Source of the DNA: a virus
IMG/VR virus record: IMGVR_UViG_3300021057_000098
Coordinates: 1-40,929 of that record
DNA length: 40,929 nt
Direction: 5' to 3' (one strand)
Position 1 is the first letter of the stretch, and the number at the start of each line of letters is the position of its first letter. Below are positions 5,336 to 40,734 of this stretch, piece by piece. A program made the position numbers and the translations under genes. The notes under the pieces are model-generated. The model had not been told where the DNA came from. It did not search any database and worked only from the letters and a program-made list of their open reading frames with translations.

Positions 5336-5419
5336 GTGGAAGTGTTCGGGGATAATTACCCTTTTTGGATTTATAAATATCACGTCAAACAAGGAGAAGA
5401 CCAAAGTGATCAAGGGTAA
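5336..5419 (+). CDS. Possible small peptide, 27 aa
   Basis: GTG 5336 is preceded by GGGGAG at a fair distance and the frame runs 27 codons, ending inside the start of the cold-shock gene. The product would be aromatic-rich (F, Y, W) and uncharged overall. There is no homology I can name. It fills the gap between nuclease and cold-shock genes, but chance is a real alternative. Confidence 0.25.
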   Translation: MEVFGDNYPFWIYKYHVKQGEDQSDQG

Positions 5420-5612
5420 GGTTAAGTGGTTTTCAAAAGAAAAAGGTTACGGCTTTATTACTCTCGAAAACGGCAAGGACGCTTTTTGTCACCATAGTGC
5501 GATCCAAGTAAAAAGCAAAGACGGTAAACATTTATTCGACGGCGAGCCGGTTATCTGCGAAGTCGTCGAAAGCCCGAAGGGTTTGCAAGCCCAGAACGTG
5601 CGGAGAGCCTAG
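5406..5612 (+). CDS. Cold-shock domain protein (CspA family)
   Basis: The 68-residue protein is a complete cold-shock domain: V-K-W-F-S-K-E-K-G-Y-G-F-I (RNP1, residues 6-18), D-A-F-C-H-H-S (RNP2, 25-31), a central loop, and the closing G-x-x-A-x-N-V. These proteins bind single-stranded RNA or DNA and melt secondary structure. It starts with GTG 5406 behind AAGGAGAA. Phage-borne cold-shock proteins are known. Here it lies two genes upstream of a large non-coding repeat array, so RNA chaperoning of that array is conceivable but unproven. Confidence 0.9.
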   Translation: MIKGKVKWFSKEKGYGFITLENGKDAFCHHSAIQVKSKDGKHLFDGEPVICEVVESPKGLQAQNVRRA

Positions 5613-5615
5613 AGC

Positions 5616-6017
5616 GTGGGAAAGAAGCTTTGCGTCGGCGACGAGGTATTCGCGATTCTTGCTGCCGTAGATGACGTCATCGAAGGCTCGGAGTGGTTCG
5701 GAAATCAATTTGAGTCTTTACAAGCTTCTCGAATGAAGTACGCGGCCGGAAAGAGTTTTCGGATCCATCACCATATTTTAAACCCGAGGACGATCAAGAG
5801 AACGCAAGAGTCGTTTATCGTAATCCGCGGCCGAATCGCGGTTGATATTTACGACAATAAGGCCGCATTCGTCGGGACGCTAGAAGCCGGGCCAGGAGAA
5901 GCGATTTTCGTTTATCGAGGTGGTCACGGCGTTCGCGTTTTAGAGGATGCGGTTTTTTACGAGGTTAAAGCCGGCCAATTTTCTTACGTTTCGGAAGATA
6001 AAATTTTTTTAGATTAG
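5616..6017 (+). CDS. Cupin-fold protein of the sugar-biosynthesis type
   Basis: The 133-residue protein has a single cupin barrel: I-H-H-H (metal-binding histidines, about 49-52), T-Q-E-S-F-I-V-I-R-G-R-I-A-V-D-I (62-77), G-P-G-E-A-I-F-V and G-G-H-G (102-105), ending in E-V-K-A-G-x-F-x-Y-V-S-E-D-K. Small cupins with this H-H, E, G-G-H-G pattern and E-V-K ending occur in surface-polysaccharide loci beside DegT aminotransferases. It starts at GTG 5616, three bases after the cold-shock stop. Its expected partner, the aminotransferase at 6988, is separated from it by the repeat-array module. Confidence 0.7.
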   Translation: MGKKLCVGDEVFAILAAVDDVIEGSEWFGNQFESLQASRMKYAAGKSFRIHHHILNPRTIKRTQESFIVIRGRIAVDIYDNKAAFVGTLEAGPGEAIFVYRGGHGVRVLEDAVFYEVKAGQFSYVSEDKIFLD

Positions 6018-6071
6018 GCGTGGCTCGCCGATGTGAGGTAAGCCGAGGCTTGTCCTGGTAAGGCAAGGTAA
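6017..6071 (+). repeat. 5-nt periodic array, upstream block (11 GGYNN units)
   Basis: From the last base of the cupin stop codon, the sequence falls on a strict 5-nt lattice for 11 units without a slip. Hand count: unit position 1 is G in 10 of 11, position 2 is G in 7 of 11, position 3 is a pyrimidine in 11 of 11, and position 5 is A or T in 10 of 11. Position 4 is free. The block ends 9 bases before the ribosome binding site of the RAMP-like gene. It encodes no protein. Confidence 0.85.
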
Positions 6072-6091
6072 TTAAAAAAGGAGAAATGAAA

Positions 6092-6697
6092 ATGAAAAAA
6101 GCGCTGCTAAATGGCAATTCAAATGAAGCAAAAGAAACTATCGAAATTGGCGCTCCTTATTCGGTAGAAGTCGAGCTGACAGGAACTTGCCCGATTTTAT
6201 TTCACAGATGGTCTTGTGATGACGTGAAAGCAAAATCCGAAGCCGCCAAAAACTCGAAAGCAAAAAAAACCGATAATCTTGAGGCTTATGTTTATCGGAA
6301 CGAAAAGGGTGAAATTTCTATCCCCGGCGAATATGTCAGGCAGTCGATCATTCATGCCGCGAAATATAAACAAGACCCGAGAAGCCCACGGAAGTCAGCA
6401 ATGGACATTTTTAAAGCGGGTGTAATTGTCGCGAATGAGCTGGCTTCTCTGGGTACGAAAGATTGGGATTTTATTGATAAAAGACGAGTCGTTATCCAGA
6501 GGAATGGCGTTACTCGTATGCGGCCAGCCATGCTTTCTGGTTGGAAGGCAAAATTTCAATTTGAAGTAATTTTGCCCGAATACATCACACCTGAATTTTT
6601 CCAAGATGTTTTGGTGAATGCTGGAAGATTGGTTGGGGTGGGTGATTTTCATCCAACTTTCGGTCGGTTTAATGTGACGAAGTTTGAGGTTATCTAA
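6092..6697 (+). CDS. RAMP-like (Cas7/Cas5/Cas6-fold-like) protein associated with repeat array
   Basis: The protein has 201 residues. I choose ATG 6092 because GGAG at 6080-6083 is 8 nt upstream; ATG 6086 is only 2 nt away. The N-terminus (residues 24-40) reads as a first strand plus P-I-L-F-H-R-W, residues 75-96 have I-S-I-P-G-E-Y-V-R-Q-S-I-I-H-A-A-K-Y, as in RAMP proteins where a proline-glycine turn leads into a helix, and the C-terminus (178-200) has G-R-L-x-G-V-G-D-F-x-P-x-F-G-R-F-x-V, like the RAMP glycine-rich loop. A basic segment (96-101) could bind RNA. I recall similar unnamed proteins in other phages. The fold call is inference; no Cas1, Cas2, Cas6 partner or CRISPR is present. 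Confidence 0.55.
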   Translation: MKKALLNGNSNEAKETIEIGAPYSVEVELTGTCPILFHRWSCDDVKAKSEAAKNSKAKKTDNLEAYVYRNEKGEISIPGEYVRQSIIHAAKYKQDPRSPRKSAMDIFKAGVIVANELASLGTKDWDFIDKRRVVIQRNGVTRMRPAMLSGWKAKFQFEVILPEYITPEFFQDVLVNAGRLVGVGDFHPTFGRFNVTKFEVI

Positions 6698-6700
6698 TCA

Positions 6701-6969
6701 GGATCGCTTTGGTGTTGCTAGGTTAGCATGGGTAAGCTGCGGCGCGTTGAGGCTAACTATTTAAGGCGAGTTGTGGAGAGGTGGGGTTCGTTTCGGATCG
6801 GCGCGGATTGGAAAGCTAGGTTATGGTACGGCGAGGCTAATTATTTCTGGTCAGGTAAGGACGGCTAGGGTCTTGTAAGGCGCGGTACGTTATGCCCGGG
6901 TTTAGGTGTGGTGATGTGCGTTAAGGAGCGGATAGGCAGGCTGAGGTAAGTTTTGGTGAGGTGTGGTTA
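6701..6969 (+). repeat. 5-nt periodic array, downstream block (about 50 GGYNN units)
   Basis: This gene-free stretch of about 270 bases consists almost wholly of pentamers of the form G-G-Y-N-N. The phase is constant for 6701-6760, then for 6765-6818, 6825-6844, 6849-6858, 6869-6903 and 6905-6969, with single-base slips between. Most units start with G, about two thirds with GG, and the third base is usually T or C. In 6701-6755 strong GG units alternate with weaker ones, giving a 10-base super-period. The + strand is G-rich and C-poor. No frame is open for any length, no inverted repeat dominates, and it ends just before the ribosome binding site AAAAGGAG of the next gene. Confidence 0.85.
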
Positions 6970-6987: not shown

Positions 6988-7986
6988 TTGATTAGAGTCT
7001 CAGAGCCGTTACTCGCAGGCAATGAAAAGAAATACGTCCTAGAGGCTTTGGACGCCGGCGAAATCTCAAGCGGCGGGAGATTTGTCCGTCAATTCGAGGA
7101 GGCGTTCGCCAAGTGGAGCGGGAATAAATATGCGGTCGCCGTATCCAGCGGAACCGCAGCGCTCGAAACCGCGATTTGGTCTTTGGGGATCAATGAAATA
7201 TCAATCCCGGCAGGGACCATTATCAGCTGCTATATCGCCGCTATCCGCGCCGGCGCCCGAGTGGTTTTTAGGGACAACGGAAACGGTGCCGGTGGCAGCC
7301 ATATCATGCGATGCCATCTTTTCGGCGAGCGTGAAAATTTACAACTATTCAATCCTATCGGCGACCCATTCTTGGCGGACCTGAAAGCGGTGGATGATTG
7401 CTCTCAGTATTGGGTGCCGTTCAGGACCGACGGCGTTGCCTGCTATTCGCTTTATGCAAACAAGCTTATAACTGCCGGCGAAGGTGGCGTCATCGTTACG
7501 AATGACGAAGCGGTTTATAGGCTCGCGCGTTCATACCGTGATTTATGCCATAGCGAGGAGCGATTCGTTCATAAACACCTGGGTTATAACTTTAGGATTT
7601 CAAACCTTCAGGCGGCCGTGGCACTCGCCCAGCTTGAGCAAATCGATCGGTTCACCGAGATAAAGCAAAGAAATCGAGACCTATATCTTAAATATCTGCC
7701 CGAGCAGGCCCAATGTCTTTTTAAAGTCGACGTGCCTTGGATGTATTTGGTGAAGACCCATTACGATGCCGGCGAAGTGGTTCAGGAAATGCGGAACGAA
7801 GCTGTTGAGTGCCGCCGATTCTTTTACCCGCTCCATCGCCAGCCTTGTATTAAGGCTGGCGGGTTATACCCGAATGCTGACAGCCTTTGGAATCATGCAT
7901 TTTATCTGCCTTCGGGCCTAAGTTTAACCGAAAAGGAAATCGCGTATGTTTGCGAGAGATTACGCTCGGTTCTACGATCTATTTAA
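6988..7986 (+). CDS. DegT/DnrJ/EryC1-family sugar aminotransferase
   Basis: The 332-residue PLP enzyme transfers an amino group to a nucleotide-linked keto-sugar. Family marks are S-S-G-T-A-A-L-E (53-60, phosphate binding), the Asp-Asp at 136-137, and the PLP lysine K159 in Y-A-N-K-L-x-x-A-G-E-G-G, followed by H-x-G-x-N-F-R-I-S-N-L-Q-A-A. It is somewhat shorter than the usual 360-390 residues, with a compact middle region. The start is TTG 6988 behind AAAAGGAG. It opens the main run of overlapping glycan genes. Confidence 0.88.
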   Translation: MIRVSEPLLAGNEKKYVLEALDAGEISSGGRFVRQFEEAFAKWSGNKYAVAVSSGTAALETAIWSLGINEISIPAGTIISCYIAAIRAGARVVFRDNGNGAGGSHIMRCHLFGERENLQLFNPIGDPFLADLKAVDDCSQYWVPFRTDGVACYSLYANKLITAGEGGVIVTNDEAVYRLARSYRDLCHSEERFVHKHLGYNFRISNLQAAVALAQLEQIDRFTEIKQRNRDLYLKYLPEQAQCLFKVDVPWMYLVKTHYDAGEVVQEMRNEAVECRRFFYPLHRQPCIKAGGLYPNADSLWNHAFYLPSGLSLTEKEIAYVCERLRSVLRSI

Positions 7987-8587
7987 TTCAGACAAGCCCT
8001 ATCAAAAGGAAATCACTTTTGTTTACGAGTGGGCCAGAAAGCCGCAATGGGTTTTCGATATCGGCTGCGGAAACGGCAGCTATTGGAAATATTACCCGAA
8101 AGACACGCATATATTGGGCATTGATAAATCACGCGCGATGGCATCTGGATCAAAAAACATTATCTGCGCGGATATTACGCGTTGGAAGCAGAACGGAACG
8201 CCGTCCCTCTTTGAATGCGCGACCGCGTTGTTTGACGTGCTTAATTACATTCCGCGGCATGACTGGTGGGGAAAGATTCCCGTCGAAAAAGGCGGCTATT
8301 TCATTTTCGACATTTGGGACAAAGAGAAGGTTGAGCTTGAGGGATTCAGAAAAACGCTCAAAGTCATGGGCAAGGCGTTTAGGAAAATAACGCCGGTTAA
8401 GTACGACGGGAAATCGGTTGATCTGAAAATCGACATTTGGGACGACAAGGTTAATTTTCAGGAGCTTCATACGATGTACCTTCATAGCGAAGAAGATATT
8501 GAAAGATTTTGCGGCCAGGAATTTGAAGTTGTTGAAACCATGCCAACGAAGAATTGGCAAAAGTGGTTTAAATGCCGAAGAAAATAG
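7946..8587 (+). CDS. Class I SAM-dependent methyltransferase
   Basis: The 213-residue protein has the Rossmann methyltransferase core: V-F-D-I-G-C-G-N-G (36-44, SAM-binding motif I), I-L-G-I-D-K-S (56-62, acidic end of strand 2) and I-I-C-A-D-I-T (motif II region). The N-terminal D-Y-A-R-F-Y-D-L-F is typical of small-molecule methyltransferases of sugar pathways. It overlaps the aminotransferase gene by 41 bases. The likely target is an amino or hydroxyl group on the sugar or glycan made by this island. Confidence 0.82.
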   Translation: MFARDYARFYDLFNSDKPYQKEITFVYEWARKPQWVFDIGCGNGSYWKYYPKDTHILGIDKSRAMASGSKNIICADITRWKQNGTPSLFECATALFDVLNYIPRHDWWGKIPVEKGGYFIFDIWDKEKVELEGFRKTLKVMGKAFRKITPVKYDGKSVDLKIDIWDDKVNFQELHTMYLHSEEDIERFCGQEFEVVETMPTKNWQKWFKCRRK

Positions 8588-9555
8588 CGCTTCTTCATAG
8601 ATTCCCAAAAGAGACGATCAAGGAAACGAACGCCGCGTTTCCTTATCTCCAATCGAAGGGCATTCACGTCATCACGTTTAAGAAATTTAATCGTCTGAAT
8701 AGTATTCAGAAACTATTTAAAAGCGTTCTTTGGATTTTTTATGCTCCACTTTTGGTTATCGGGAAAGGGTTCGATGTTATCTACTGCGACGACTCCTTTC
8801 CGTTCTACCCGGCGCTAGTCAAGATAGCCTCTCCAAAATCAAAAGTCGTTATCCGGCTAGGTGATCTTCATCTGATGTATTACGTCTCGGGCTTTGCATT
8901 TAAATTCCTCCATTTTTTTGAGCGGATGGTTTGGAAGATGGCCGACGAAATCGTTGCCATATCTGAGCCTATGGCGAAATACATTTACCAAGAAACGCGG
9001 AAATATCCGGCAGTTATCCTTGACCCGGTTGAACCGAAAGACTTTCCGTCGAACGGCGGCGCCGCTGGAAATATTGTTATGTTTCATGGCCTCATAACGA
9101 GGAACAAAAACATAGATATATTGCTCGAGGCCGCAACGAAACTGCCTCTATTTGACTTTCTGATTGTCGGCGACGGCCCAGATAAAGACCGTCTTTTAAA
9201 GAAGAAACCCAGAAACGTACATTTCGTTGGCTGGATTCCGTTCAAGCATATTCCCGCCTATATCGCCACTTGCAGCGTCGGCGTTGCGCTAAGGAGTAGC
9301 AATCCGGCCAATGAATACGTCGTTACTTCTCCTTTCCTTCAATACGGCGTCATGGGAAAGCCTTGTCTTGTTACCCGCCGGGAAGTGTTCGGCGATTACC
9401 CGTGGCAGTTTTCTAACGTAGACGAGCTAGTCGATAAAATCAGAATCCTTTTAAAGCGGCCGCAGCATGAAGGGAAAAAGCTTCAAGAATTCATTCTTAA
9501 AAACCATAGCGCCAAGAAGATCGCGGAGGAAATTTGGTCTCTGTTGTCATCCTGA
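8572..9555 (+). CDS. Glycosyltransferase, GT-B fold (family 4 type)
   Basis: The 327-residue protein has two Rossmann-like halves. The C-terminal half shows M-F-H-G-L-I-T-R-N-K-N-I-D-I-L-L-E-A, V-G-D-G-P-D-K-D-R-L and H-F-V-G-W-I-P-F, the standard nucleotide-sugar site of GT4 enzymes. The E-x7-E-like region is weakened (E-Y-V-V-T-S-P-F-L-Q-Y near 243-253). The N-terminal half carries a hydrophobic stretch that could touch the membrane. It overlaps genes on both sides, so expression is coupled. Confidence 0.85.
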   Translation: MPKKIALLHRFPKETIKETNAAFPYLQSKGIHVITFKKFNRLNSIQKLFKSVLWIFYAPLLVIGKGFDVIYCDDSFPFYPALVKIASPKSKVVIRLGDLHLMYYVSGFAFKFLHFFERMVWKMADEIVAISEPMAKYIYQETRKYPAVILDPVEPKDFPSNGGAAGNIVMFHGLITRNKNIDILLEAATKLPLFDFLIVGDGPDKDRLLKKKPRNVHFVGWIPFKHIPAYIATCSVGVALRSSNPANEYVVTSPFLQYGVMGKPCLVTRREVFGDYPWQFSNVDELVDKIRILLKRPQHEGKKLQEFILKNHSAKKIAEEIWSLLSS

Positions 9556-10304
9556 CAACTGGCGAAGCAAAGAGCGTCTTACGTGATCTTAAGAATCAGA
9601 CGCATCGGAATTTCGAGATTATTCTCGCCAAAGAGCGGGGCATCGTAAAGGCGATGAATAGCGCGTTATGGCAGGCGAAGGGGGATATTTTGGTCCGAAT
9701 CGACGATGACGTGACACTTCCGAAGAATTGGCTTGTTGAGCTAGTCAAGCCTTTCTCGGACCCGCAAGTCGCCGGTGCCACCGGACCGACCTTTGTCCCG
9801 AAGGATCGGAGACAGAATCGGGACAGTATTCGGATCGCCGAAGATCCGAATTGGTTTCTGCGATGGATGTTTGATAACGAGCCTTACGCTCTAGCCAAAA
9901 TTTATAAATGCGGCTCTGTATCCTACGGCTCCAATTTCCCAGAGGTTATCCGGCGTTTGGGAATATTCGAGCCTGACCATTTGGAGGGAACAAATTGGGC
10001 CATGCGGACAAGCCTTATTAAGATGGTCGGCGGCTTTGATCCCGCCTTTGACGGCGTTGCCGAGTGGTTTGACACCGACGTCGAGCAGAAGATTAAGCGT
10101 CTCGGGTACAAGCTGCGGTATAACCCGGAGGCTTATTTATTTCATATGCTCGAGAAAACCGAAAACTATTATGACCGCTTTGAAGTTTTCGGACGCATAG
10201 AAAACTGGCTTCGGTTTCATAAGCGTCACTCGAAGTTTCACTATAAAAAAATCATCTGGCTTTTGATGCTCCTGGGGTATGCGCTATGTCCGAAATATCG
10301 GTAA
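9534..10304 (+). CDS. Family 2 glycosyltransferase (GT-A)
   Basis: The 256-residue protein starts at TTG 9534 behind GGAGG. It has the GT2 beginning V-S-V-V-I-L-T-T, a D-D-D cluster at 57-59 (metal and nucleotide-sugar binding), and a later F-D-P-A-F-D-G-V-A-E-W-F-D-T-D-V acidic segment that stands for the E-D base motif. The C-terminus ends in a short hydrophobic helix (L-L-M-L-L-G), probably for membrane contact. The donor sugar cannot be told from sequence. Confidence 0.82.
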   Translation: MVSVVILTTGEAKSVLRDLKNQTHRNFEIILAKERGIVKAMNSALWQAKGDILVRIDDDVTLPKNWLVELVKPFSDPQVAGATGPTFVPKDRRQNRDSIRIAEDPNWFLRWMFDNEPYALAKIYKCGSVSYGSNFPEVIRRLGIFEPDHLEGTNWAMRTSLIKMVGGFDPAFDGVAEWFDTDVEQKIKRLGYKLRYNPEAYLFHMLEKTENYYDRFEVFGRIENWLRFHKRHSKFHYKKIIWLLMLLGYALCPKYR

Positions 10305-11104
10305 TTATTCCAACGATGAAGGGACGAGAAGCCCTTTTAAATAAACTTCTTTTGAGCCTGCCCGGAGACGTTGAAACGATTATTGTCGATGACGAAAGAT
10401 TACTTTTGGCCGCCAAGAGGAACAAGGGAGCTAAAAGGGCTAAAGGAAGATACCTTTTATTCGTCGATGACGACAATTATTTATCGACCGATGCCTTGCT
10501 AAAGATGGCCCGTTTTCAAGAGCGCGTTGGAGTGGTAGGCATGACCGCTTGCTATGACGATAAAAAGCTAAGAATAGCCGATGGTGGATCAAACAGAAAT
10601 TATCTCAGTGGATTTACTTCGGGCCAGAGAACTAACGCGCGGCTTTGGGAAGTGGGTAAGAATTGCTACGAGGTTGACGAGGTCGCCAACGCCTTCATGG
10701 TTCGGCGCGATTTATTTGAGCAATTGGGAGGATTCGACGAGGTTAATTTTCCAATCGATCTGGATGAAGCGGATTTCTGCAAAAGGGCAAAAGACGCCGG
10801 CTATTTAGTGATTATGAACCCAGAAGCGATTTGTTATCACAAGTCGCAAACCTACTCGCATATCCCAGACTTTCGCCGGCCGATGAACGCCTATTTTATG
10901 GGACGCAACCGGATTCTATACCAAAAGAAGCACTTGCCAGCCTGGAAGCTGGCCATCTATTTCGTGGTATTCTTCCCGATTTTTTATCTGTCTTATTGCG
11001 CTTGCCTTCTTTATCGGGGCAAGCCTGGCATGATCTGGCATTTCTCAAAGGGGGTTTTCGATGGAATATTCGGTCGTTTCAAGAATCAATTTCAACAAGG
11101 ATAA
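10286..11104 (+). CDS. Family 2 glycosyltransferase (GT-A), rhamnosyltransferase-like
   Basis: The 272-residue protein has I-S-V-I-I-P-T-M (4-11), V-D-D-D-N (60-64, the DXD site), G-G-F-D-E-V and D-L-D-E-A-D-F-C-K-R-A (the E-D base region), and a C-terminal hydrophobic stretch near residues 225-250 that is probably a membrane anchor. This layout is common for O-antigen transferases. It overlaps the preceding transferase by 19 bases and the HPr-kinase-like gene by 44 bases. Confidence 0.84.
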   Translation: MSEISVIIPTMKGREALLNKLLLSLPGDVETIIVDDERLLLAAKRNKGAKRAKGRYLLFVDDDNYLSTDALLKMARFQERVGVVGMTACYDDKKLRIADGGSNRNYLSGFTSGQRTNARLWEVGKNCYEVDEVANAFMVRRDLFEQLGGFDEVNFPIDLDEADFCKRAKDAGYLVIMNPEAICYHKSQTYSHIPDFRRPMNAYFMGRNRILYQKKHLPAWKLAIYFVVFFPIFYLSYCACLLYRGKPGMIWHFSKGVFDGIFGRFKNQFQQG

Positions 11105-11870
11105 AGCCCGTAAGATCGGGGCGTTTTTTTACGATCCCGACACCGATGGCCTGTATCACGAAAGCCCTTGGCCTTTTCCGGTCCAGCTTCTGATTACGCA
11201 TGGACTAAGTAAATGCTATGTCACGCCTGGCTTCTTAAAGCTGCCCTTCATTCTGAAAGGTTGGATCAATCTCGACATTCTCTTAAGGGAAATCGACCTT
11301 TTGAACCTGGCCCTAAACGGCAAGATTTTGATGCATGCCTCTTGCGTCGACGACACATTAATCGTTGGGTTTCCAAATTCTGGGAAGACCTATCAGACGT
11401 ATATGACTGTATCAAAAGGCGGCGAGTTGATTTCGGAGGAATACACCGTTATTGACGCCAAGACGAAGACCGCATCGCCTTATAAGAGGATCATGCGGAC
11501 CTGCTTTTCGGAGAGAACGCTAAGAGACTGCGGAATCCCGATAACCCCCCGCGAAACGCTCGGGCTTATCTTTGCGACGATCCGCGCGAAGCTCATGCCT
11601 TTCATGTTCGAGGCGGCGATCTGGAAGGAAATCCCAGCCAGCGGCCGCATATCCAAGATCAAGCGGATTGTTTACGGCTCAACGGGAACGGAAATAACCG
11701 AATGGAAGGCCTTCGCGATTCTCTGCGAAAACGAATTTCCTTTCATGTCGAGCGAGTTTTTGCAGGCATACGCCTTCGGCTCGGGCCTCGACCTTATCGG
11801 CATTCAGGAGCAACAAAGGAACCTAATCAAGGATTTTGTTTATGCGGTCTATCCTCATAACCGGAAATAA
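11061..11870 (+). CDS. HPr kinase/phosphorylase-like P-loop protein
   Basis: The 269-residue protein has the C-terminal HPr-kinase signature: L-M-H-A-S-C-V (90-96) leading into the P-loop G-F-P-N-S-G-K-T (103-110) and G-E-L-I-S-E-E-Y-T-V-I-D (121-132), the acidic segment after it. It lacks the full HPr kinase N-terminal domain and has about 85 unrelated residues instead. Such stand-alone homologues occur in glycan and peptide-modification clusters, where some phosphorylate small substrates rather than HPr. A sugar or lipid-linked substrate is possible. The start ATG 11061 follows AAAGGGGG. Confidence 0.75.
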   Translation: MEYSVVSRINFNKDKARKIGAFFYDPDTDGLYHESPWPFPVQLLITHGLSKCYVTPGFLKLPFILKGWINLDILLREIDLLNLALNGKILMHASCVDDTLIVGFPNSGKTYQTYMTVSKGGELISEEYTVIDAKTKTASPYKRIMRTCFSERTLRDCGIPITPRETLGLIFATIRAKLMPFMFEAAIWKEIPASGRISKIKRIVYGSTGTEITEWKAFAILCENEFPFMSSEFLQAYAFGSGLDLIGIQEQQRNLIKDFVYAVYPHNRK

Positions 11871-12552
11871 AGGTTTCATCGCCAGCGGGTTACATGGCGA
11901 CGGGATCGACATAAAAGACGGCATCGATATCGTTTCCTATCGCGCGACTCGGAAATATGAAGTTGTCATTCATACCGCCGCCAAGACAAGCGTGACCGAG
12001 TCTATGAAAGATCCGAAGGCTTATGTTCGGACCAACCTTGTCGGGACGTTGAATATGCTACTCGAGCATCCCGAATCGCATTTCGTCTATCTGTCCACGG
12101 CCGGCGTCTATGGGGAGGGGGAATTTCATACGGTGAAGTATTCTGTCCCGAATCCAAGCTCGATTTATGCTTCGACGAAGCTTGCCGGGGAGTTTTTAAT
12201 CAGGAACCTGGCCAAGTCTTGGACGATTTTAAGGCTTACCAACGTCATCGGCGACGAAGACCGAGGCGAGGCCAACGTGTATCAGGTATTCAGAAAAGCC
12301 GATGTTTTGCCGATTTACGGCGATGGGTTTCAATCGCGCGATTTTATCCGCGTTGAAAAGGTCCGAGAGGCAATCAATTACGTCGTAAAAAACAACATCT
12401 GCGGGACTTATAACGTGGGGTCCGGGCATTCAAAGACGATCCTACAGGTGGCCGACGAGTTTAAGAAGCCTATTCAATTCTTCCCAGCGCGGGAAGGGGA
12501 AATCAACCGATTCGGGATCGCTGATGCTTTCGATTATTCTTCCGAGTCATAG
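11842..12552 (+). CDS. NAD-dependent sugar epimerase/dehydratase (short SDR)
   Basis: The 236-residue protein (ATG 11842) has an extended-SDR core: I-L-I-T-G-N-K-G-F-I-A-S-G (nucleotide-binding glycine motif), H-T-A-A-K-T, Y-L-S-T-A-G-V-Y-G, and the catalytic Tyr-x3-Lys in I-Y-A-S-T-K (Y109, K113). The strand-2 region that normally follows is much shortened, and the protein is about 70 residues shorter than typical epimerases. It probably converts a nucleotide sugar used by the transferases next to it. It overlaps genes on both sides. Confidence 0.8.
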   Translation: MRSILITGNKGFIASGLHGDGIDIKDGIDIVSYRATRKYEVVIHTAAKTSVTESMKDPKAYVRTNLVGTLNMLLEHPESHFVYLSTAGVYGEGEFHTVKYSVPNPSSIYASTKLAGEFLIRNLAKSWTILRLTNVIGDEDRGEANVYQVFRKADVLPIYGDGFQSRDFIRVEKVREAINYVVKNNICGTYNVGSGHSKTILQVADEFKKPIQFFPAREGEINRFGIADAFDYSSES

Positions 12553-13108
12553 AGAGCCGGAAATCCAAGAGTTTGTGGAAGTGGTAGAAACCCGGCTTCC
12601 GAGGGCTTTTGAAATCATCGTTTCATCAGATAGGCATGGCAAAGGGAAAGGTTGGGCGATTCGCGAAGCTTTGCAAGAGGCAAGGGGAAGCGAGATAGCA
12701 TTTCTGGATGGGGACGGTGACATTCATCCGAGGATGCTTTTAAGGCTTCTGCCTTTCTTGGAAGATTTCGACGCGGTTGTCGGAACCAAGCGGATCGCTC
12801 ATAAACACTTTAGCCGGCGCGTTGTGACCGTATTTTCGAGGCTTTATATCCGGCTTCTATTCGGTTTGGAATGTGACACCCAGACGGGGATAAAGCTATT
12901 TCGCCGGGAAATGCTCGAGACATGGAAAACAGACGGTTTTTTGTTCGACGTGGAAGTGCTATCCAACATCAAAAGAAACGGGGGAAGGATCGTCGAAGTA
13001 CCAATAGAAGCGGAAATCAAAGAGAAAATGTCAGTGGGGGCCATTTGGAAGACTCTTATCGAGAGCGTTATTCTCAAGTTTCGATTATTATCCCGACCCG
13101 CGAAATAG
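12524..13108 (+). CDS. Family 2 glycosyltransferase, polyprenyl-phosphate (DPM1-like) type
   Basis: The 194-residue protein is a compact GT-A enzyme: L-S-I-I-L-P-S-H-R (2-10), D-R-H-G-K-G-K-G-W-A-I-R (36-47), L-D-G-D-G-D (61-66), V-V-G-T-K-R (74-79 region) and T-Q-T-G-I-K-L-F-R-R-E, followed by F-D-V-E-V-L. This is the pattern of dolichyl- or polyprenyl-phosphate sugar synthases, which charge a lipid carrier. It could feed the membrane-bound TMTC-like transferase at 17559, which would need lipid-linked sugar. Confidence 0.8.
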   Translation: MLSIILPSHREPEIQEFVEVVETRLPRAFEIIVSSDRHGKGKGWAIREALQEARGSEIAFLDGDGDIHPRMLLRLLPFLEDFDAVVGTKRIAHKHFSRRVVTVFSRLYIRLLFGLECDTQTGIKLFRREMLETWKTDGFLFDVEVLSNIKRNGGRIVEVPIEAEIKEKMSVGAIWKTLIESVILKFRLLSRPAK

Positions 13109-13746
13109 ACGATTACGCTTGGCGCTGTATGCGCCGCTGCGTCCGTCTCTATCCGACCGCGGAAATAATCGTCGTAACCGACAAGGAATGCCCGGGCTAT
13201 CCCGCCGGAAAGCGGAATTGGGCAATGCAACGGGCAAAAGGCAAAATCTTTGCCTTTATTGACTCGGATGCCTATCCTTCCGACCTTTGGCTTTATAAGG
13301 CGCTTTCATGGCTCGATATCCATCCCGCCGTTTGCGGTCCCGGCGTACTCCCGCCCGACGCACCTTTCGAGGAGCGGGTTTCGGATATTGTCTATCAAAT
13401 GCTGCCTTATGCCGAGCGCGTCGTTCCATTGAAAGAGAGAATCCTTTCCGAGTATCCGACCTTCAATCTCATCGTCAAAAGGGAGGTCGCCTGTCAATTT
13501 GAGAATTATCTAACCGGCGAAGATAGCCTTTTCTGCCGAAAGATAAAGGGCGGGGTTTTCTATCATCCCGATATCCTCGTATACCACAATCGGCGCCCGA
13601 TCTTTAAAAGGCTATGGAAACAGGTCGGAACATACGGCCGCCATCGCGGGAATTTCGTAAAACTGGCGCTTTTGGCCTGGGTTTCAGCGGTGTTTACCTA
13701 TGGGATCAATTTCATCAAGGGATTCTTTATGAGGAGGCCGTCTTGA
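13045..13746 (+). CDS. Family 2 glycosyltransferase (GT-A)
   Basis: I start this gene at TTG 13045 behind a GGGGG run, 12 residues before the first strand (V-S-I-I-I-P-T); the longer frame from 12922 would overlap the previous gene by far more. The 233-residue product has F-I-D-S-D-A-Y at 71-77 (DXD), an L-T-G-E-D-S-L-F acidic motif, and a short C-terminal hydrophobic segment before the stop. It overlaps the previous transferase by 64 bases, and its stop overlaps the TTG of the next gene. Confidence 0.75.
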   Translation: MEDSYRERYSQVSIIIPTREIDDYAWRCMRRCVRLYPTAEIIVVTDKECPGYPAGKRNWAMQRAKGKIFAFIDSDAYPSDLWLYKALSWLDIHPAVCGPGVLPPDAPFEERVSDIVYQMLPYAERVVPLKERILSEYPTFNLIVKREVACQFENYLTGEDSLFCRKIKGGVFYHPDILVYHNRRPIFKRLWKQVGTYGRHRGNFVKLALLAWVSAVFTYGINFIKGFFMRRPS

Positions 13747-14762
13747 AGGTTTTAGTCACGGGATCGCTTGGGCTTGTCGGCTCAGAAGCCGTCAAATTCT
13801 ATTTAAACAACGCTTGCGAAGTCATCGGCGTCGACAACGATATGCGCAAGCACTTCTTCGGAGAGGCGGCCAGCGTCGTCAAAAACAAGATCGATCACCC
13901 GAATTATCAACATTACGGCGTGGATATCTCGAAAATTGAGGGGCTTTTCCAGAACGAAAAACCCGACGTTATCATCCACGCAGCTGCGCAGCCCTCGCAT
14001 GACTATTCGGCAGTGAACCCGCTTCTAGATTTCGGGATCAACGCCTATTCGACGCTCATGCTTCTGGAAATGATGCGGAAACATACGCCTGAGGCGGTAT
14101 TTGTCTATCTCTCGACGAATAAGGTATACGGCGACACTCCAAATCAGCTGGATTTTGTCGAGGAAGAAACAAGGTACGAGAATTATAGGCGCGTAATTCA
14201 TTCTGACGAGGTCGATAAAACGATTTCTGATGGAATTGGGGAGTGGATGACGGTCGACCGGTCCATGCACTCGCCTTTCGGTGTCTCGAAGCTAGCAGGC
14301 GACCTTTACGTGCAGGAATATGCCAGATATTTTGGGCTAAAGACTGGCATTTTTCGATGCGGATGCATCACCGGCGCTGCCCACGCCGGGGCCGAGCTTC
14401 ATGGCTTTCTGGCCTATATGGTCCGCTGCAAGAAGGAGGGATGGCCCTACAAGGTTTTCGGATATAAGGGCAAGCAGGTCAGGGATCAGATTCACGCGCA
14501 TGATTTGGTCAAGGCGATCGATTGCTTTGTCCGAAACCCAAGGCCTGGCGAGGTCTATAACATGGGCGGTGGTCGGCATTCCAATGTCTCGGTTCTCGAG
14601 GCTTTGAATTGGCTCCAGATGGGAAATTGGCAATACGTCGACCAAGCTAGAAAAGGCGACCATATTTGGTACGTTTCCGACGTGTCCAAATTCAGAAGTC
14701 ATTACCCGGAATGGGATTATGATTTTAATTTGTGGTCTATTTTTGAGGATTTAATGAAATGA
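13743..14762 (+). CDS. NAD-dependent sugar epimerase (CDP-paratose 2-epimerase-like SDR)
   Basis: TTG 13743 lies behind AGGAGG and overlaps the preceding TGA; the product has 339 residues. The glycine motif T-G-S-L-G-L-V-G (6-13), H-A-A-A-Q-P-S-H-D, S-T-N-K-V-Y-G-D-x-P-N and G-A-E-L-H-G-F-L-A-Y are characteristic of the tyvelose/CDP-paratose 2-epimerase group. The usual catalytic Tyr of Y-x3-K reads Phe here (F179, with K183 kept). I recall a subgroup with the same replacement, so it may be a family trait. It is the last gene of the contiguous transferase block. Confidence 0.8.
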   Translation: MKVLVTGSLGLVGSEAVKFYLNNACEVIGVDNDMRKHFFGEAASVVKNKIDHPNYQHYGVDISKIEGLFQNEKPDVIIHAAAQPSHDYSAVNPLLDFGINAYSTLMLLEMMRKHTPEAVFVYLSTNKVYGDTPNQLDFVEEETRYENYRRVIHSDEVDKTISDGIGEWMTVDRSMHSPFGVSKLAGDLYVQEYARYFGLKTGIFRCGCITGAAHAGAELHGFLAYMVRCKKEGWPYKVFGYKGKQVRDQIHAHDLVKAIDCFVRNPRPGEVYNMGGGRHSNVSVLEALNWLQMGNWQYVDQARKGDHIWYVSDVSKFRSHYPEWDYDFNLWSIFEDLMK

Positions 14763-15998: not shown

Positions 15999-16438
15999 AC
16001 GAATTTATAACAGGCCTTACCGTCGTCCTCTGCGGTCTATTCTATTGGCTTGGCGGCCAAGAGGTCCCATGGACTAGGCGAGGCTATAAATGGATTCGCC
16101 GTTTCGTTCTTCCAGTCGTGTTATGTGTAGCGCTGATTTATCTCGGCGCCGCTTGGCATAAAGCACTCGCCGCATGCTCTGGCTTATGTGTAGCGCTTCA
16201 CGTCGGCTATCAAACCCACCTTTGGAAATACGCGATAACCGGCGCTTTTATGGGCGCTTGCGCGTTAATCGTTTCTCCACAGATTGATTTGCGATGGCTG
16301 ATTACCCTATTGCCAGCCGTCTTCCATACCGGATTCGGGCTTCTTTCGCTTAAAGACAACAAATTCGGTTGGGCCATCGTCGCGGTCCTCATGGGCGTCT
16401 CGATCGGAACGGTTTATCTATACCTAGGTGGCCAATGA
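15995..16438 (+). CDS. Multi-pass membrane protein, 147 aa
   Basis: The start is ATG 15995 with GGGAGGGG upstream. Hydrophobic segments near residues 4-20, 36-52, 55-70, 78-95, 98-118 and 122-143 suggest five or six membrane helices with short loops. I see no catalytic motif. It overlaps the radical SAM gene (ATGA at 16435), so it probably belongs with the glycan/lipid part of the island, for instance as a flippase-like helper or an immunity-type membrane protein. Function unknown. Confidence 0.6.
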   Translation: MNEFITGLTVVLCGLFYWLGGQEVPWTRRGYKWIRRFVLPVVLCVALIYLGAAWHKALAACSGLCVALHVGYQTHLWKYAITGAFMGACALIVSPQIDLRWLITLLPAVFHTGFGLLSLKDNKFGWAIVAVLMGVSIGTVYLYLGGQ

Positions 16439-17574
16439 GATATTTATTCCCGCTTAACCCCTATAACCAACAACGCCAATTTGAAAAGCCCGTTTGGGTC
16501 TACCCGGCTCATTTGGCTATGTATGCGACGTATCTAAAGAATCTCGGTTTGGACGTAATTTGGGATAGTGGGAATGAAAAAAATAAACAAATGTCCGATT
16601 ATATAATTAGGAGGTCGAAGGCGTTTCCTAAAGAAAAAATAACAATTATTAATAACGATTTTGATATTGCCGTTCCATTTGAGCAATTGCCTTATCCAGA
16701 CCGCATATTTACTGACGCCAAAAACCCACGCTGGCAATCCTACGGCAATTATAAATTTCATCCAGCCACGCATATGATGGCCTCAAACCTTTGTTGGTAT
16801 GGCAAATGCACGTTCTGCATCGATACCGCCAAGCTTCAAGCCGGGGAAAAGCGCGGTGTTCGTTCGGTAGATCATGTCATTGAAGAAATCGACGACTTGA
16901 TTGCTCAGGGCTATCGCGAAGTATTCGACGACTCGGGGACATTCCCGGTCGGCGCTTGGCTCGAGGAGTTTTGTAAGCGCATGAACGAGCCTTATGAGAA
17001 TAAGAAGCCAGGTATGGTTTATTGCTATCGAGACAAATACGGTCGCAAGAAACCGAGGAAAGATTTCATAACCATCGGCTGCAACATGAAACCGATCAAG
17101 CTCGATTACAAGATGATGGCCAATGCCGGCTTTCGCTTTATCTTGGTTGGCATTGAATCGGCGAATCAAGCGACCGTCGACCGAATTCAGAAAGGGCAAC
17201 GATCCGAGGATATCATCCCAATCATTAAAAGCATGTCGGACGCAGGCCTTGAGCCGCATTTAACGAGTATGTTCGGATACGAATGGGAAACCCATGAGGA
17301 TGCCATGCGGACGGTTAATCTTGTCCATTACCTACTGAAAAAAGGTTATGCCAAGACCGCTCAAGCCTCGGTTTTCTGCCCTCCGAGGACCGCGCCGGCG
17401 CCCGATCAGAAGGGACATAAGTATATCCCGATGATCTATGACGCCTATAAATCGCCTCAATTTTGGTATCACAAAGTAAAAGACATGAAACGCTGGGAAG
17501 ATTTCACGTATATTTTAAGAGGCGCGCGCCTCGTCGCTGAAGAAAAATGGAGGAAGCTGTGTTTGAAAATGTAG
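16435..17574 (+). CDS. Radical SAM enzyme (B12-binding-type family)
   Basis: ATG 16435 overlaps the preceding TGA; the protein has 379 residues. Residues 1-110 form a cobalamin-type N-terminal region without a clear D-x-H-x-x-G. The iron-sulfur cluster motif is L-C-W-Y-G-K-C-T-F-C (C120, C125, C128), a C-x4-C-x2-C spacing instead of the common C-x3-C-x2-C. Downstream, I-L-V-G-I-E-S-A-N and T-S-M-F-G-Y-E-W-E-T-H-E-D are usual radical SAM barrel motifs. It should do a radical modification such as methylation or rearrangement. The substrate is probably a lipid or sugar, given the neighbouring TMTC-like transferase. Confidence 0.82.
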   Translation: MRYLFPLNPYNQQRQFEKPVWVYPAHLAMYATYLKNLGLDVIWDSGNEKNKQMSDYIIRRSKAFPKEKITIINNDFDIAVPFEQLPYPDRIFTDAKNPRWQSYGNYKFHPATHMMASNLCWYGKCTFCIDTAKLQAGEKRGVRSVDHVIEEIDDLIAQGYREVFDDSGTFPVGAWLEEFCKRMNEPYENKKPGMVYCYRDKYGRKKPRKDFITIGCNMKPIKLDYKMMANAGFRFILVGIESANQATVDRIQKGQRSEDIIPIIKSMSDAGLEPHLTSMFGYEWETHEDAMRTVNLVHYLLKKGYAKTAQASVFCPPRTAPAPDQKGHKYIPMIYDAYKSPQFWYHKVKDMKRWEDFTYILRGARLVAEEKWRKLCLKM

Positions 17575-39710: not shown

Positions 39711-39801
39711 AAAGTTTTTAATTCCACCGATTGCCTCGCTTTCCCGAGTAATTTCCTTCTTGGCGCCGCAAAGCAGCAAAATGTGGTACAAGGGGAACGC
39801 C

Positions 39802-40734
39802 ATGCTTACAGTAATTGAAAACCCAATCGAAGGTTATTTGGAATATAGCAAGACGCTCCGAGTCCTTCAGCCAACCACGATCAAGCGATACGCGCTACAT
39901 CTAACTCGCATTCAAGCGGAGCTAGGATTCCCGATCCTAGAAGTGACACGCGGTTCCCAAATAGAGCAGGCCATTATCCAGGCAGCCACAAAAAGAAAGA
40001 TGAAATATAACGGCGGCCACGTCGACGATGGCCGGCAGTTCCGTTTCCGCATGGGGATCGAGGCTGCGAATTTCTTCTCTTGGGCGCATAGAGAGTTTCT
40101 GATAGAACGAAACCCTTACCCGAGAAACACATTTCCAAAGCCGCCGAAGCCTCCGGTTGGATTCCTTGACGATGACCGCTTATCATTGGTTTTAAGTTCC
40201 CCCGTCCTGCGCGTCGAGGAGCATATGCTCATTCGCTTTATGCTCGATACAGGCTTAAGGCGCTTTGAAGTTTGCGACGTGAAGCTCTCGGATATTAACT
40301 TTGAGACGCGCCTTGTCCGGGTAAAAGGTAAATGCGACAAATGGGCATCCCTCCCAATCACCCCGACAACGATAACTTGGATCGCCTTTTATCTGAGCCT
40401 TCGGAAAGTCGAAAGCGAATACCTTGTCTGTAATCTTGAAGGGGGGAGGCTCAATCCAAATATGCTGAATAAAATCTTCCACGATATATCAGCGGCAATG
40501 AATTTCCGGGTCCACCCGCACATGCTTCGGCATACACTCGGGACAATGCTCATTATGCAGAACGAGCAAATTGTCGTTATGCAGTACCTACGGCATAACC
40601 GGCCGGAGATGACGAACCATTACGTTCATTTGACCGGGAAGCACCTGAAGCAGATACAGGAAAAGACCTTTTCCAACAAGCCTAATATCTTTGCGGCACA
40701 ATACCCTTCGAGATACCAGGCAAATAATAATTAA
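39802..40734 (+). CDS. int: Tyrosine recombinase / phage integrase
   Basis: I choose ATG 39802 behind AAGGGG. The 310-residue protein has the SAM-like N-terminal domain (10-110) and a full catalytic domain: R153 in T-G-L-R-R-F-E-V, K177 in V-K-G-K, H240 and R243 in H-M-L-R-H, H265 in Y-L-R-H, and the nucleophile Y274 in T-N-H-Y-V-H-L. The compact layout without a lambda-type arm-binding domain resembles XerC/D-like integrases. It marks the phage as temperate. Confidence 0.92.
   Translation: MLTVIENPIEGYLEYSKTLRVLQPTTIKRYALHLTRIQAELGFPILEVTRGSQIEQAIIQAATKRKMKYNGGHVDDGRQFRFRMGIEAANFFSWAHREFLIERNPYPRNTFPKPPKPPVGFLDDDRLSLVLSSPVLRVEEHMLIRFMLDTGLRRFEVCDVKLSDINFETRLVRVKGKCDKWASLPITPTTITWIAFYLSLRKVESEYLVCNLEGGRLNPNMLNKIFHDISAAMNFRVHPHMLRHTLGTMLIMQNEQIVVMQYLRHNRPEMTNHYVHLTGKHLKQIQEKTFSNKPNIFAAQYPSRYQANNN

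What the first reader, a model, noticed from the sequence alone, without database searches (positions are those of the whole stretch)
6017..6969. Stand-alone RAMP-like protein flanked on both sides by a degenerate 5-nt periodic (GGYNN) non-coding array
The sequence shows a 201-residue protein gene with 11 pentamer units directly upstream and about 50 directly downstream. In the upstream block G occupies lattice position 1 in 10 of 11 units and a pyrimidine position 3 in 11 of 11, while the other bases vary freely. This is neither a microsatellite, CRISPR nor coding sequence: selection seems to act on spacing and on the GGY face only. RAMP proteins of the Cas7 group assemble on RNA with a regular few-nucleotide step (6 nt in known Cas7 filaments). 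A protein that steps 5 nt along a G-G-Y lattice would explain the array. I infer a self-encoded ribonucleoprotein filament, made from one transcript that carries both the protein gene and its scaffold RNA. The function (counter-defence, RNA protection, packaging, regulation) is open.
Basis: partly seen in the sequence, partly recalled or inferred. Interest (0 to 1): 0.95.

Follow-up and report, generated by a model that had tools for sequence, protein, structure and literature searches.

The report
Phage VIPR RNA-guided DNA-targeting locus
This phage carries a small CRISPR-like protein gene flanked by arrays of five-letter GGY-NN repeats, which is the signature of the recently described VIPR system, in which the variable letter pairs guide the protein to rival DNA; the locus is a new member of that system, from a widespread phage branch with no accessory gene.

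Summary
The gene at 6086-6697 encodes a Cas7-fold RAMP protein (AlphaFold pLDDT 90.9; best PDB fold matches are Csm3, type VII Cas7 and Cas7-11). It is flanked by GGYNN arrays: 11 units upstream and about 50 downstream. Two reciprocal scans of IMG/VR agree. A search for the array alone returned 120 stretches, of which about 88 encode a homologue. A search for the protein alone returned 348 relatives; all 80 examined carry a same-strand array. The system is already described. The family profile matches PDB entry 36pp, "SUSP1 Vipr protein" (E=3e-50). A 2026 preprint (PMC13142463) describes VIPR: Vipr plus vrRNAs of GGY/NN repeats that recognise DNA through the NN pairs with a one-base skip. The window's clade is monophyletic (100/100), separate from SUSP1-like Viprs, has no shared accessory gene, and often has long arrays. 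In a sister locus, one guide decodes under the one-base-skip rule to a rival's vipr gene (21/22 letters) but matches its own less well (17/22). No target was found for the window's own guides.

The parts
6017..6071 (+). Upstream GGYNN block, 11 units (candidate vrRNA guide U); begins at the stop codon of the preceding gene and runs into TTAAAAAAGGAG, the ribosome-binding region of vipr
   Evidence: 29 of 33 lattice letters, 0 of 20,000 simulations
6086..6697 (+). vipr homologue: 203-aa RAMP/Cas7-fold protein, PHROG 4652, with C-terminal glycine-rich loop LVGVGDFHPTFGRF
6701..6755 (+). Downstream block D1, 11 units (candidate guide); weakest on its own
6756..6764 (+). AT-rich junction ACTATTTAA with register shift between D1 and D2 (possible processing site, inference)
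6765..6839 (+). Downstream block D2, 15 units (candidate guide)
6840..6848 (+). AT-rich junction ATTATTTCT with register shift between D2 and D3
6849..6904 (+). Downstream block D3a, 11 units, the last being the 6-nt unit GGTTTA (candidate guide)
6905..6967 (+). Downstream block D3b, 12-13 units (candidate guide), followed by TATTTTAAAAGGAG and the next gene

Best explanation
This is a VIPR (Viral Interference Programmable Repeat) locus of a probably temperate phage. The 203-aa Vipr protein, a minimal Cas7-like RAMP, is inferred to coat short RNAs cut from the flanking GGYNN arrays, with one subunit for each 5-nt unit. The GGY letters would be held by the protein, and the NN pairs would pair with double-stranded DNA read as NN-x-NN-x (one base skipped in every three). 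The bound complex would silence the target gene, most likely in a competing phage, prophage or satellite. Shown here: the protein family and fold, the arrays, their coupling and strand, and one-base-skip matching in a sister locus. Shown by others in the SUSP1 system: vrRNA expression, RNP formation (also in P. fulva), DNA binding and silencing. Inferred for this window: expression, processing into about five guides, and target identity, which is unknown.
For: The family profile matches PDB 36pp 'SUSP1 Vipr protein' at E=3e-50; the single sequence gives 6e-9. The model has pLDDT 90.9 and the top Foldseek hits are type VII Cas7, Csm3 and Cas7-11. Arrays are present beside 80 of 80 homologues found by protein alone, with 5295 units on the gene's strand against 84 on the other; shuffled loci gave 2 of 80. 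About 88 of 120 array-only hits encode a homologue. Positions 4 and 5 are near uniform while 1-3 are fixed. In sister locus L124, a guide at 789-883 decodes to the vipr motif KKTDNIETYVY of L074 with 21 of 22 letters, in the codon frame with the skip at the wobble base; all 13 clade genes align best at that site, and its own gene matches 17 of 22; shuffled guides reach at most 16. One-base-skip seed matches number 12, against a mean of 4.7 for shuffled unit order and 3-6 for other skips. The published description matches point for point.
Against: No target for any of the window's own guides was found in IMG/VR or in the window beyond chance. The window lacks a vap1-like gene and the structured 3' tail of type II vrRNAs. 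Its units are less regular than most. The in-silico support for the skip rule in this clade is modest (12 against a shuffled maximum of 9).
Confidence: 0.93

Rival explanations
1. Self-encoded RNP filament in which the RNA is only a scaffold: the protein packs on GGY units and the NN letters are free spacers.
For: The Cas7 fold and 5-nt lattice fit.
Against: NN pairs decode to a conserved coding motif under the one-base-skip rule in a sister locus, and skip-1 seed matches exceed shuffled unit order. In the SUSP1 system, changing the NN letters abolishes or redirects silencing (PMC13142463).
Confidence: 0.03
2. Autoregulatory leader: Vipr bound to the upstream block next to its own ribosome-binding site represses its translation, as TRAP does on 5-nt-spaced triplets.
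For: The upstream block ends directly at the ribosome-binding region of vipr. From general knowledge, TRAP binds NAG triplets with 2-nt spacers.
Against: Of 80 homologues, 17 have arrays only downstream, so an upstream block is not required. It could be an added effect rather than the main role.
Confidence: 0.1
3. DNA-level binding array, such as an origin, partition or packaging site read as double-stranded DNA.
For: Arrays are always next to the gene of the putative binder.
Against: Arrays lie upstream or downstream but almost always on the gene's strand (5295 against 84 units; 6308 against 352), as expected for a transcript. vrRNAs are expressed and co-purify with Vipr in SUSP1 (PMC13142463).
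Confidence: 0.02
4. A decaying VIPR locus: once active, now losing array regularity.
For: GG occurs in only 61% of units, 10th lowest of 81, and D1 alone is weak.
Against: The ORF is intact with all clade-invariant residues, and several sister loci have similar regularity.
Confidence: 0.1

Closest known systems
VIPR type II (SUSP1 / Felixounavirus, P. fulva prophage; PMC13142463, PDB 36pp)
   Same: Homologous Vipr (31% identity to wV8 gp95, profile E=3e-50 to 36pp); GGYNN arrays on both sides of vipr; same strand; phage-borne.
   Different: The window's clade is separate on the tree, has no vap1-like gene, and the window shows short AT-rich junctions instead of the hairpin-like tails seen in wV8.
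VIPR systems with staggered arrays or without vap (possibly type I)
   Same: The preprint names seven types, six vap genes, and staggered arrays with overlapping vrRNAs; a vap-less type fits this clade.
   Different: Assignment is inference only: the supplement with type assignments could not be read.
Class 1 CRISPR Cas7 (Csm3, type VII Cas7, Cas7-11)
   Same: RAMP fold, glycine-rich loop, RNA lattice with a regular step.
   Different: No CRISPR array, no other cas genes, 5-nt rather than 6-nt step, non-contiguous guide.
TRAP (trp RNA-binding attenuation protein)
   Same: Recognises triplets spaced by 2 nt, a 5-nt period (general knowledge).
   Different: Different fold; an 11-mer ring with a fixed regulatory site, not guides.

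Membership tests
VIPR system | Vipr protein: stand-alone RAMP homologue with RRM core and G-loop | tested here: met
   (36pp); glycine-rich loop
VIPR system | Flanking vrRNA arrays of alternating GGY/NN | tested here: met
   80 of 80 relatives
VIPR system | vrRNAs of 9-16 units | tested here: inconclusive
   Register shifts split the window's arrays into 11, 11, 15, 11 and 12-13 units, but clade-wide segment lengths are broad and no RNA data exist.
VIPR system | NN pairs recognise DNA with a 1-nt skip | tested here: inconclusive
   Supported in sister L124 against L074 and by seed counts; no target for the window's own guides.
VIPR system | vrRNAs expressed and bound by Vipr; transcriptional silencing | not testable with these tools
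   Shown in PMC13142463: expression and binding for SUSP1 and P. fulva, silencing for SUSP1.
VIPR type II | vap1 gene next to vipr | tested here: not met
   No vap1-like ORF in the window; no gene family shared by more than 10 of 78 clade loci. wV8 gp94 was taken as vap1 from its position.
VIPR type II | Structured 3' tail with pseudoknot after each repeat tract | tested here: not met
   No repeated structured tail in the window; downstream block folds no better than shuffles, z=+1.03. Sister L008 does carry a repeated ~52-nt tail.
Class 1 CRISPR-Cas | CRISPR repeats and other cas genes | tested here: not met
   No tandem repeat array of that kind; no PADLOC match for the window protein; annotated neighbours are recombination and sugar genes.
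Hammerhead-interspersed VIPR arrays | Hammerhead ribozymes between vrRNAs | tested here: not met
   No Rfam family at gathering score in the window.

The most novel reading that the evidence does not exclude
The window's clade, which has no accessory gene and often long arrays (up to about 147 units in one stretch), may set guide boundaries or use its arrays differently from the characterised type II systems, for instance by overlapping guides or longer filaments, and may silence rival VIPR genes.
Probability: 0.2. Interest if true: 0.65.

Novelty: new member of a known kind. Interest (0 to 1): 0.5.

Why it matters
VIPR is a newly reported form of RNA-guided DNA recognition, proposed to predate CRISPR. 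This locus was found independently from raw sequence. It adds a large branch (348 relatives in IMG/VR) without a shared accessory gene, an unbiased test in which array and gene went together in 80 of 80 loci, and a computed case of one VIPR's guide matching a rival's vipr gene better than its own.

Tried and rejected
Pfam and PADLOC give no usable name for the protein. Rfam finds nothing in the window. Targets of the window's five guides were sought in IMG/VR with 8-9-unit one-base-skip seeds. U gave 26 hits whose flanks match at about chance; D1 gave 1, D2 1, D3a 0 and D3b 4, none extending. The D3b hits in L157 and L158 lie in a 206-aa protein that looks to me like a DnaQ-type exonuclease, but their flanks do not match. 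No self-target was found in the window. Register shifts as universal guide boundaries: the segment-length distribution is broad, so not shown. An iterated vap1 profile drifted into translated arrays and was used only for its absence in the window. A genome-contig scan gave one relative only, a Fimbriimonadaceae MAG contig. The window is a virus record, so no relatives were drawn for it.

Full report
The finding holds. The window is a 40,929-base virus record. The ORF at 6086-6697 encodes 203 residues. Non-coding blocks on both sides follow a 5-nt lattice: period-5 power downstream is 6.28 against a simulated mean of 0.71 and maximum of 4.2, the highest value in the window. The upstream block has 29 of 33 expected letters, never reached in 20,000 simulations; of the four downstream segments D2 and D3b are never reached, D3a 7 times and D1 102 times. 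The downstream block changes register three times, so it reads as segments of 11, 15, 11 and 12-13 units.

The coupling of gene and array is general. Iterated profile searches on those stretches plus the first five homologous loci found 93 homologous ORFs, one per locus, about 88 of them in the pattern-found stretches. The reverse scan used a 13-member protein alignment only and found 348 relatives. All 80 of the best have a same-strand array within 1.5 kb: 35 on both sides, 28 upstream only, 17 downstream only. Units on the gene's strand number 5295 and on the other strand 84; shuffled sequence gave arrays in 2 of 80 loci. Some of the 80 are near-duplicates, so they are not 80 independent cases. 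Orientation that holds on both sides of the gene points to RNA rather than duplex DNA. Across these loci position 1 is G in 93%, position 2 G in 83%, position 3 a pyrimidine in 90%, and positions 4 and 5 are near uniform.

The protein is a RAMP. AlphaFold gives pLDDT 90.9 and pTM 0.84. Foldseek against the PDB gives 141 matches at E <= 0.001, led by type VII Cas7, Csm3 and Cas7-11. Pfam has no family for it; PHROG 4652, of unknown function, covers all 74 aligned members. The profile matches one solved structure strongly, 36pp, "SUSP1 Vipr protein", E=3e-50.

[quoted passage not shown] It describes VIPR: Vipr, an ancestral RAMP, and vrRNAs of 9-16 YNNGG repeats whose NN letters recognise double-stranded DNA with one skipped base per triplet. 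vrRNAs are expressed and co-purify with Vipr, and the complex silences genes and protects against lambda. Natural targets are competing phages, satellites and other VIPR loci. The window matches the description in protein, array and phage context, so it is filed as a VIPR member. Expression and targeting were not tested for the window itself.

I tested the code on this clade as far as sequence allows. In sister locus L124, an array at 789-883 on the minus strand decodes, with a one-base skip, to the antisense of vipr codons KKTDNIETYVY in L074: 21 of 22 letters, in codon frame, skip at the wobble position. All 13 clade genes match best at this same site and frame. Its own vipr gene matches only 17 of 22, among the lowest, and shuffled guides reach at most 16. 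This looks like a guide against a rival VIPR that tends to spare itself. Across all arrays, exact eight-unit seeds hit 12 distinct guide segments under skip 1, against a mean of 4.7 (maximum 9) for shuffled unit order and 3-6 for other skips. This is modest but independent support.

For the window's own guides I found no target. Seed searches of IMG/VR gave U 26 hits, D1 1, D2 1, D3a 0 and D3b 4, with flanks no better than chance. The host is unknown and its prophages may not be in the collection.

What differs from the characterised type II systems: the window's clade is monophyletic (100/100), on a long stem apart from the SUSP1-like wV8 protein; no vap1-like gene is in the window and no gene family is shared by more than 10 of 78 clade loci; and the window has no repeated structured tail, the downstream block folding no better than shuffles (z=+1.03), with AT-rich junctions instead. 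Sister L008 does have a repeated ~52-nt tail, so tails vary within the clade. Because the preprint lists seven types but six vap genes, a vap-less type I is a plausible home; this is inference, since the supplement could not be read. Array stretches of up to 147 units (L206) exceed the 9-16 units given for single vrRNAs and may correspond to the "staggered arrays with overlapping vrRNAs" that the preprint mentions.

The system is already described, so this is a new member of a known kind.

Noticed in passing
window 6988-14762: A run of sugar and glycan genes directly downstream of the VIPR locus: DegT aminotransferase, methyltransferase, several glycosyltransferases and two NAD-dependent epimerases. 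Together with an integrase at 39760-40734 this suggests a temperate phage that alters its host's surface glycan.
   Followed up: partly
window 16369-17574: Radical SAM enzyme (Pfam E=9e-14) between the glycan genes and the terminase, next to ORFs of unknown family.
   Followed up: no
window 5406-5612: Cold-shock (CspA-like) nucleic-acid-binding protein two genes upstream of vipr; it did not turn up among the gene families shared by other VIPR loci.
   Followed up: partly
L124:789-883 (minus strand): Array on the strand opposite to its own vipr gene whose decoded guide matches vipr genes of related phages better than its own.
   Followed up: yes
L160-L239 arrays: Register shifts inside arrays are mostly insertions: 65 units of 6 nt plus 19 one-base steps, against 13 units of 4 nt. 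Why +1 steps are preferred is unexplained.
   Followed up: partly
L008:1206-1820 and its downstream arrays: Sister locus with blocks of 12-16 units separated by a nearly identical ~52-nt tail (GCCTTATTGC...GTGCAATCG) that looks able to form a hairpin and a long-range pairing.
   Followed up: no
L126:7968-8609: A clade member in a contig binned as a Fimbriimonadaceae (Armatimonadota) genome, possibly a prophage.
   Followed up: no
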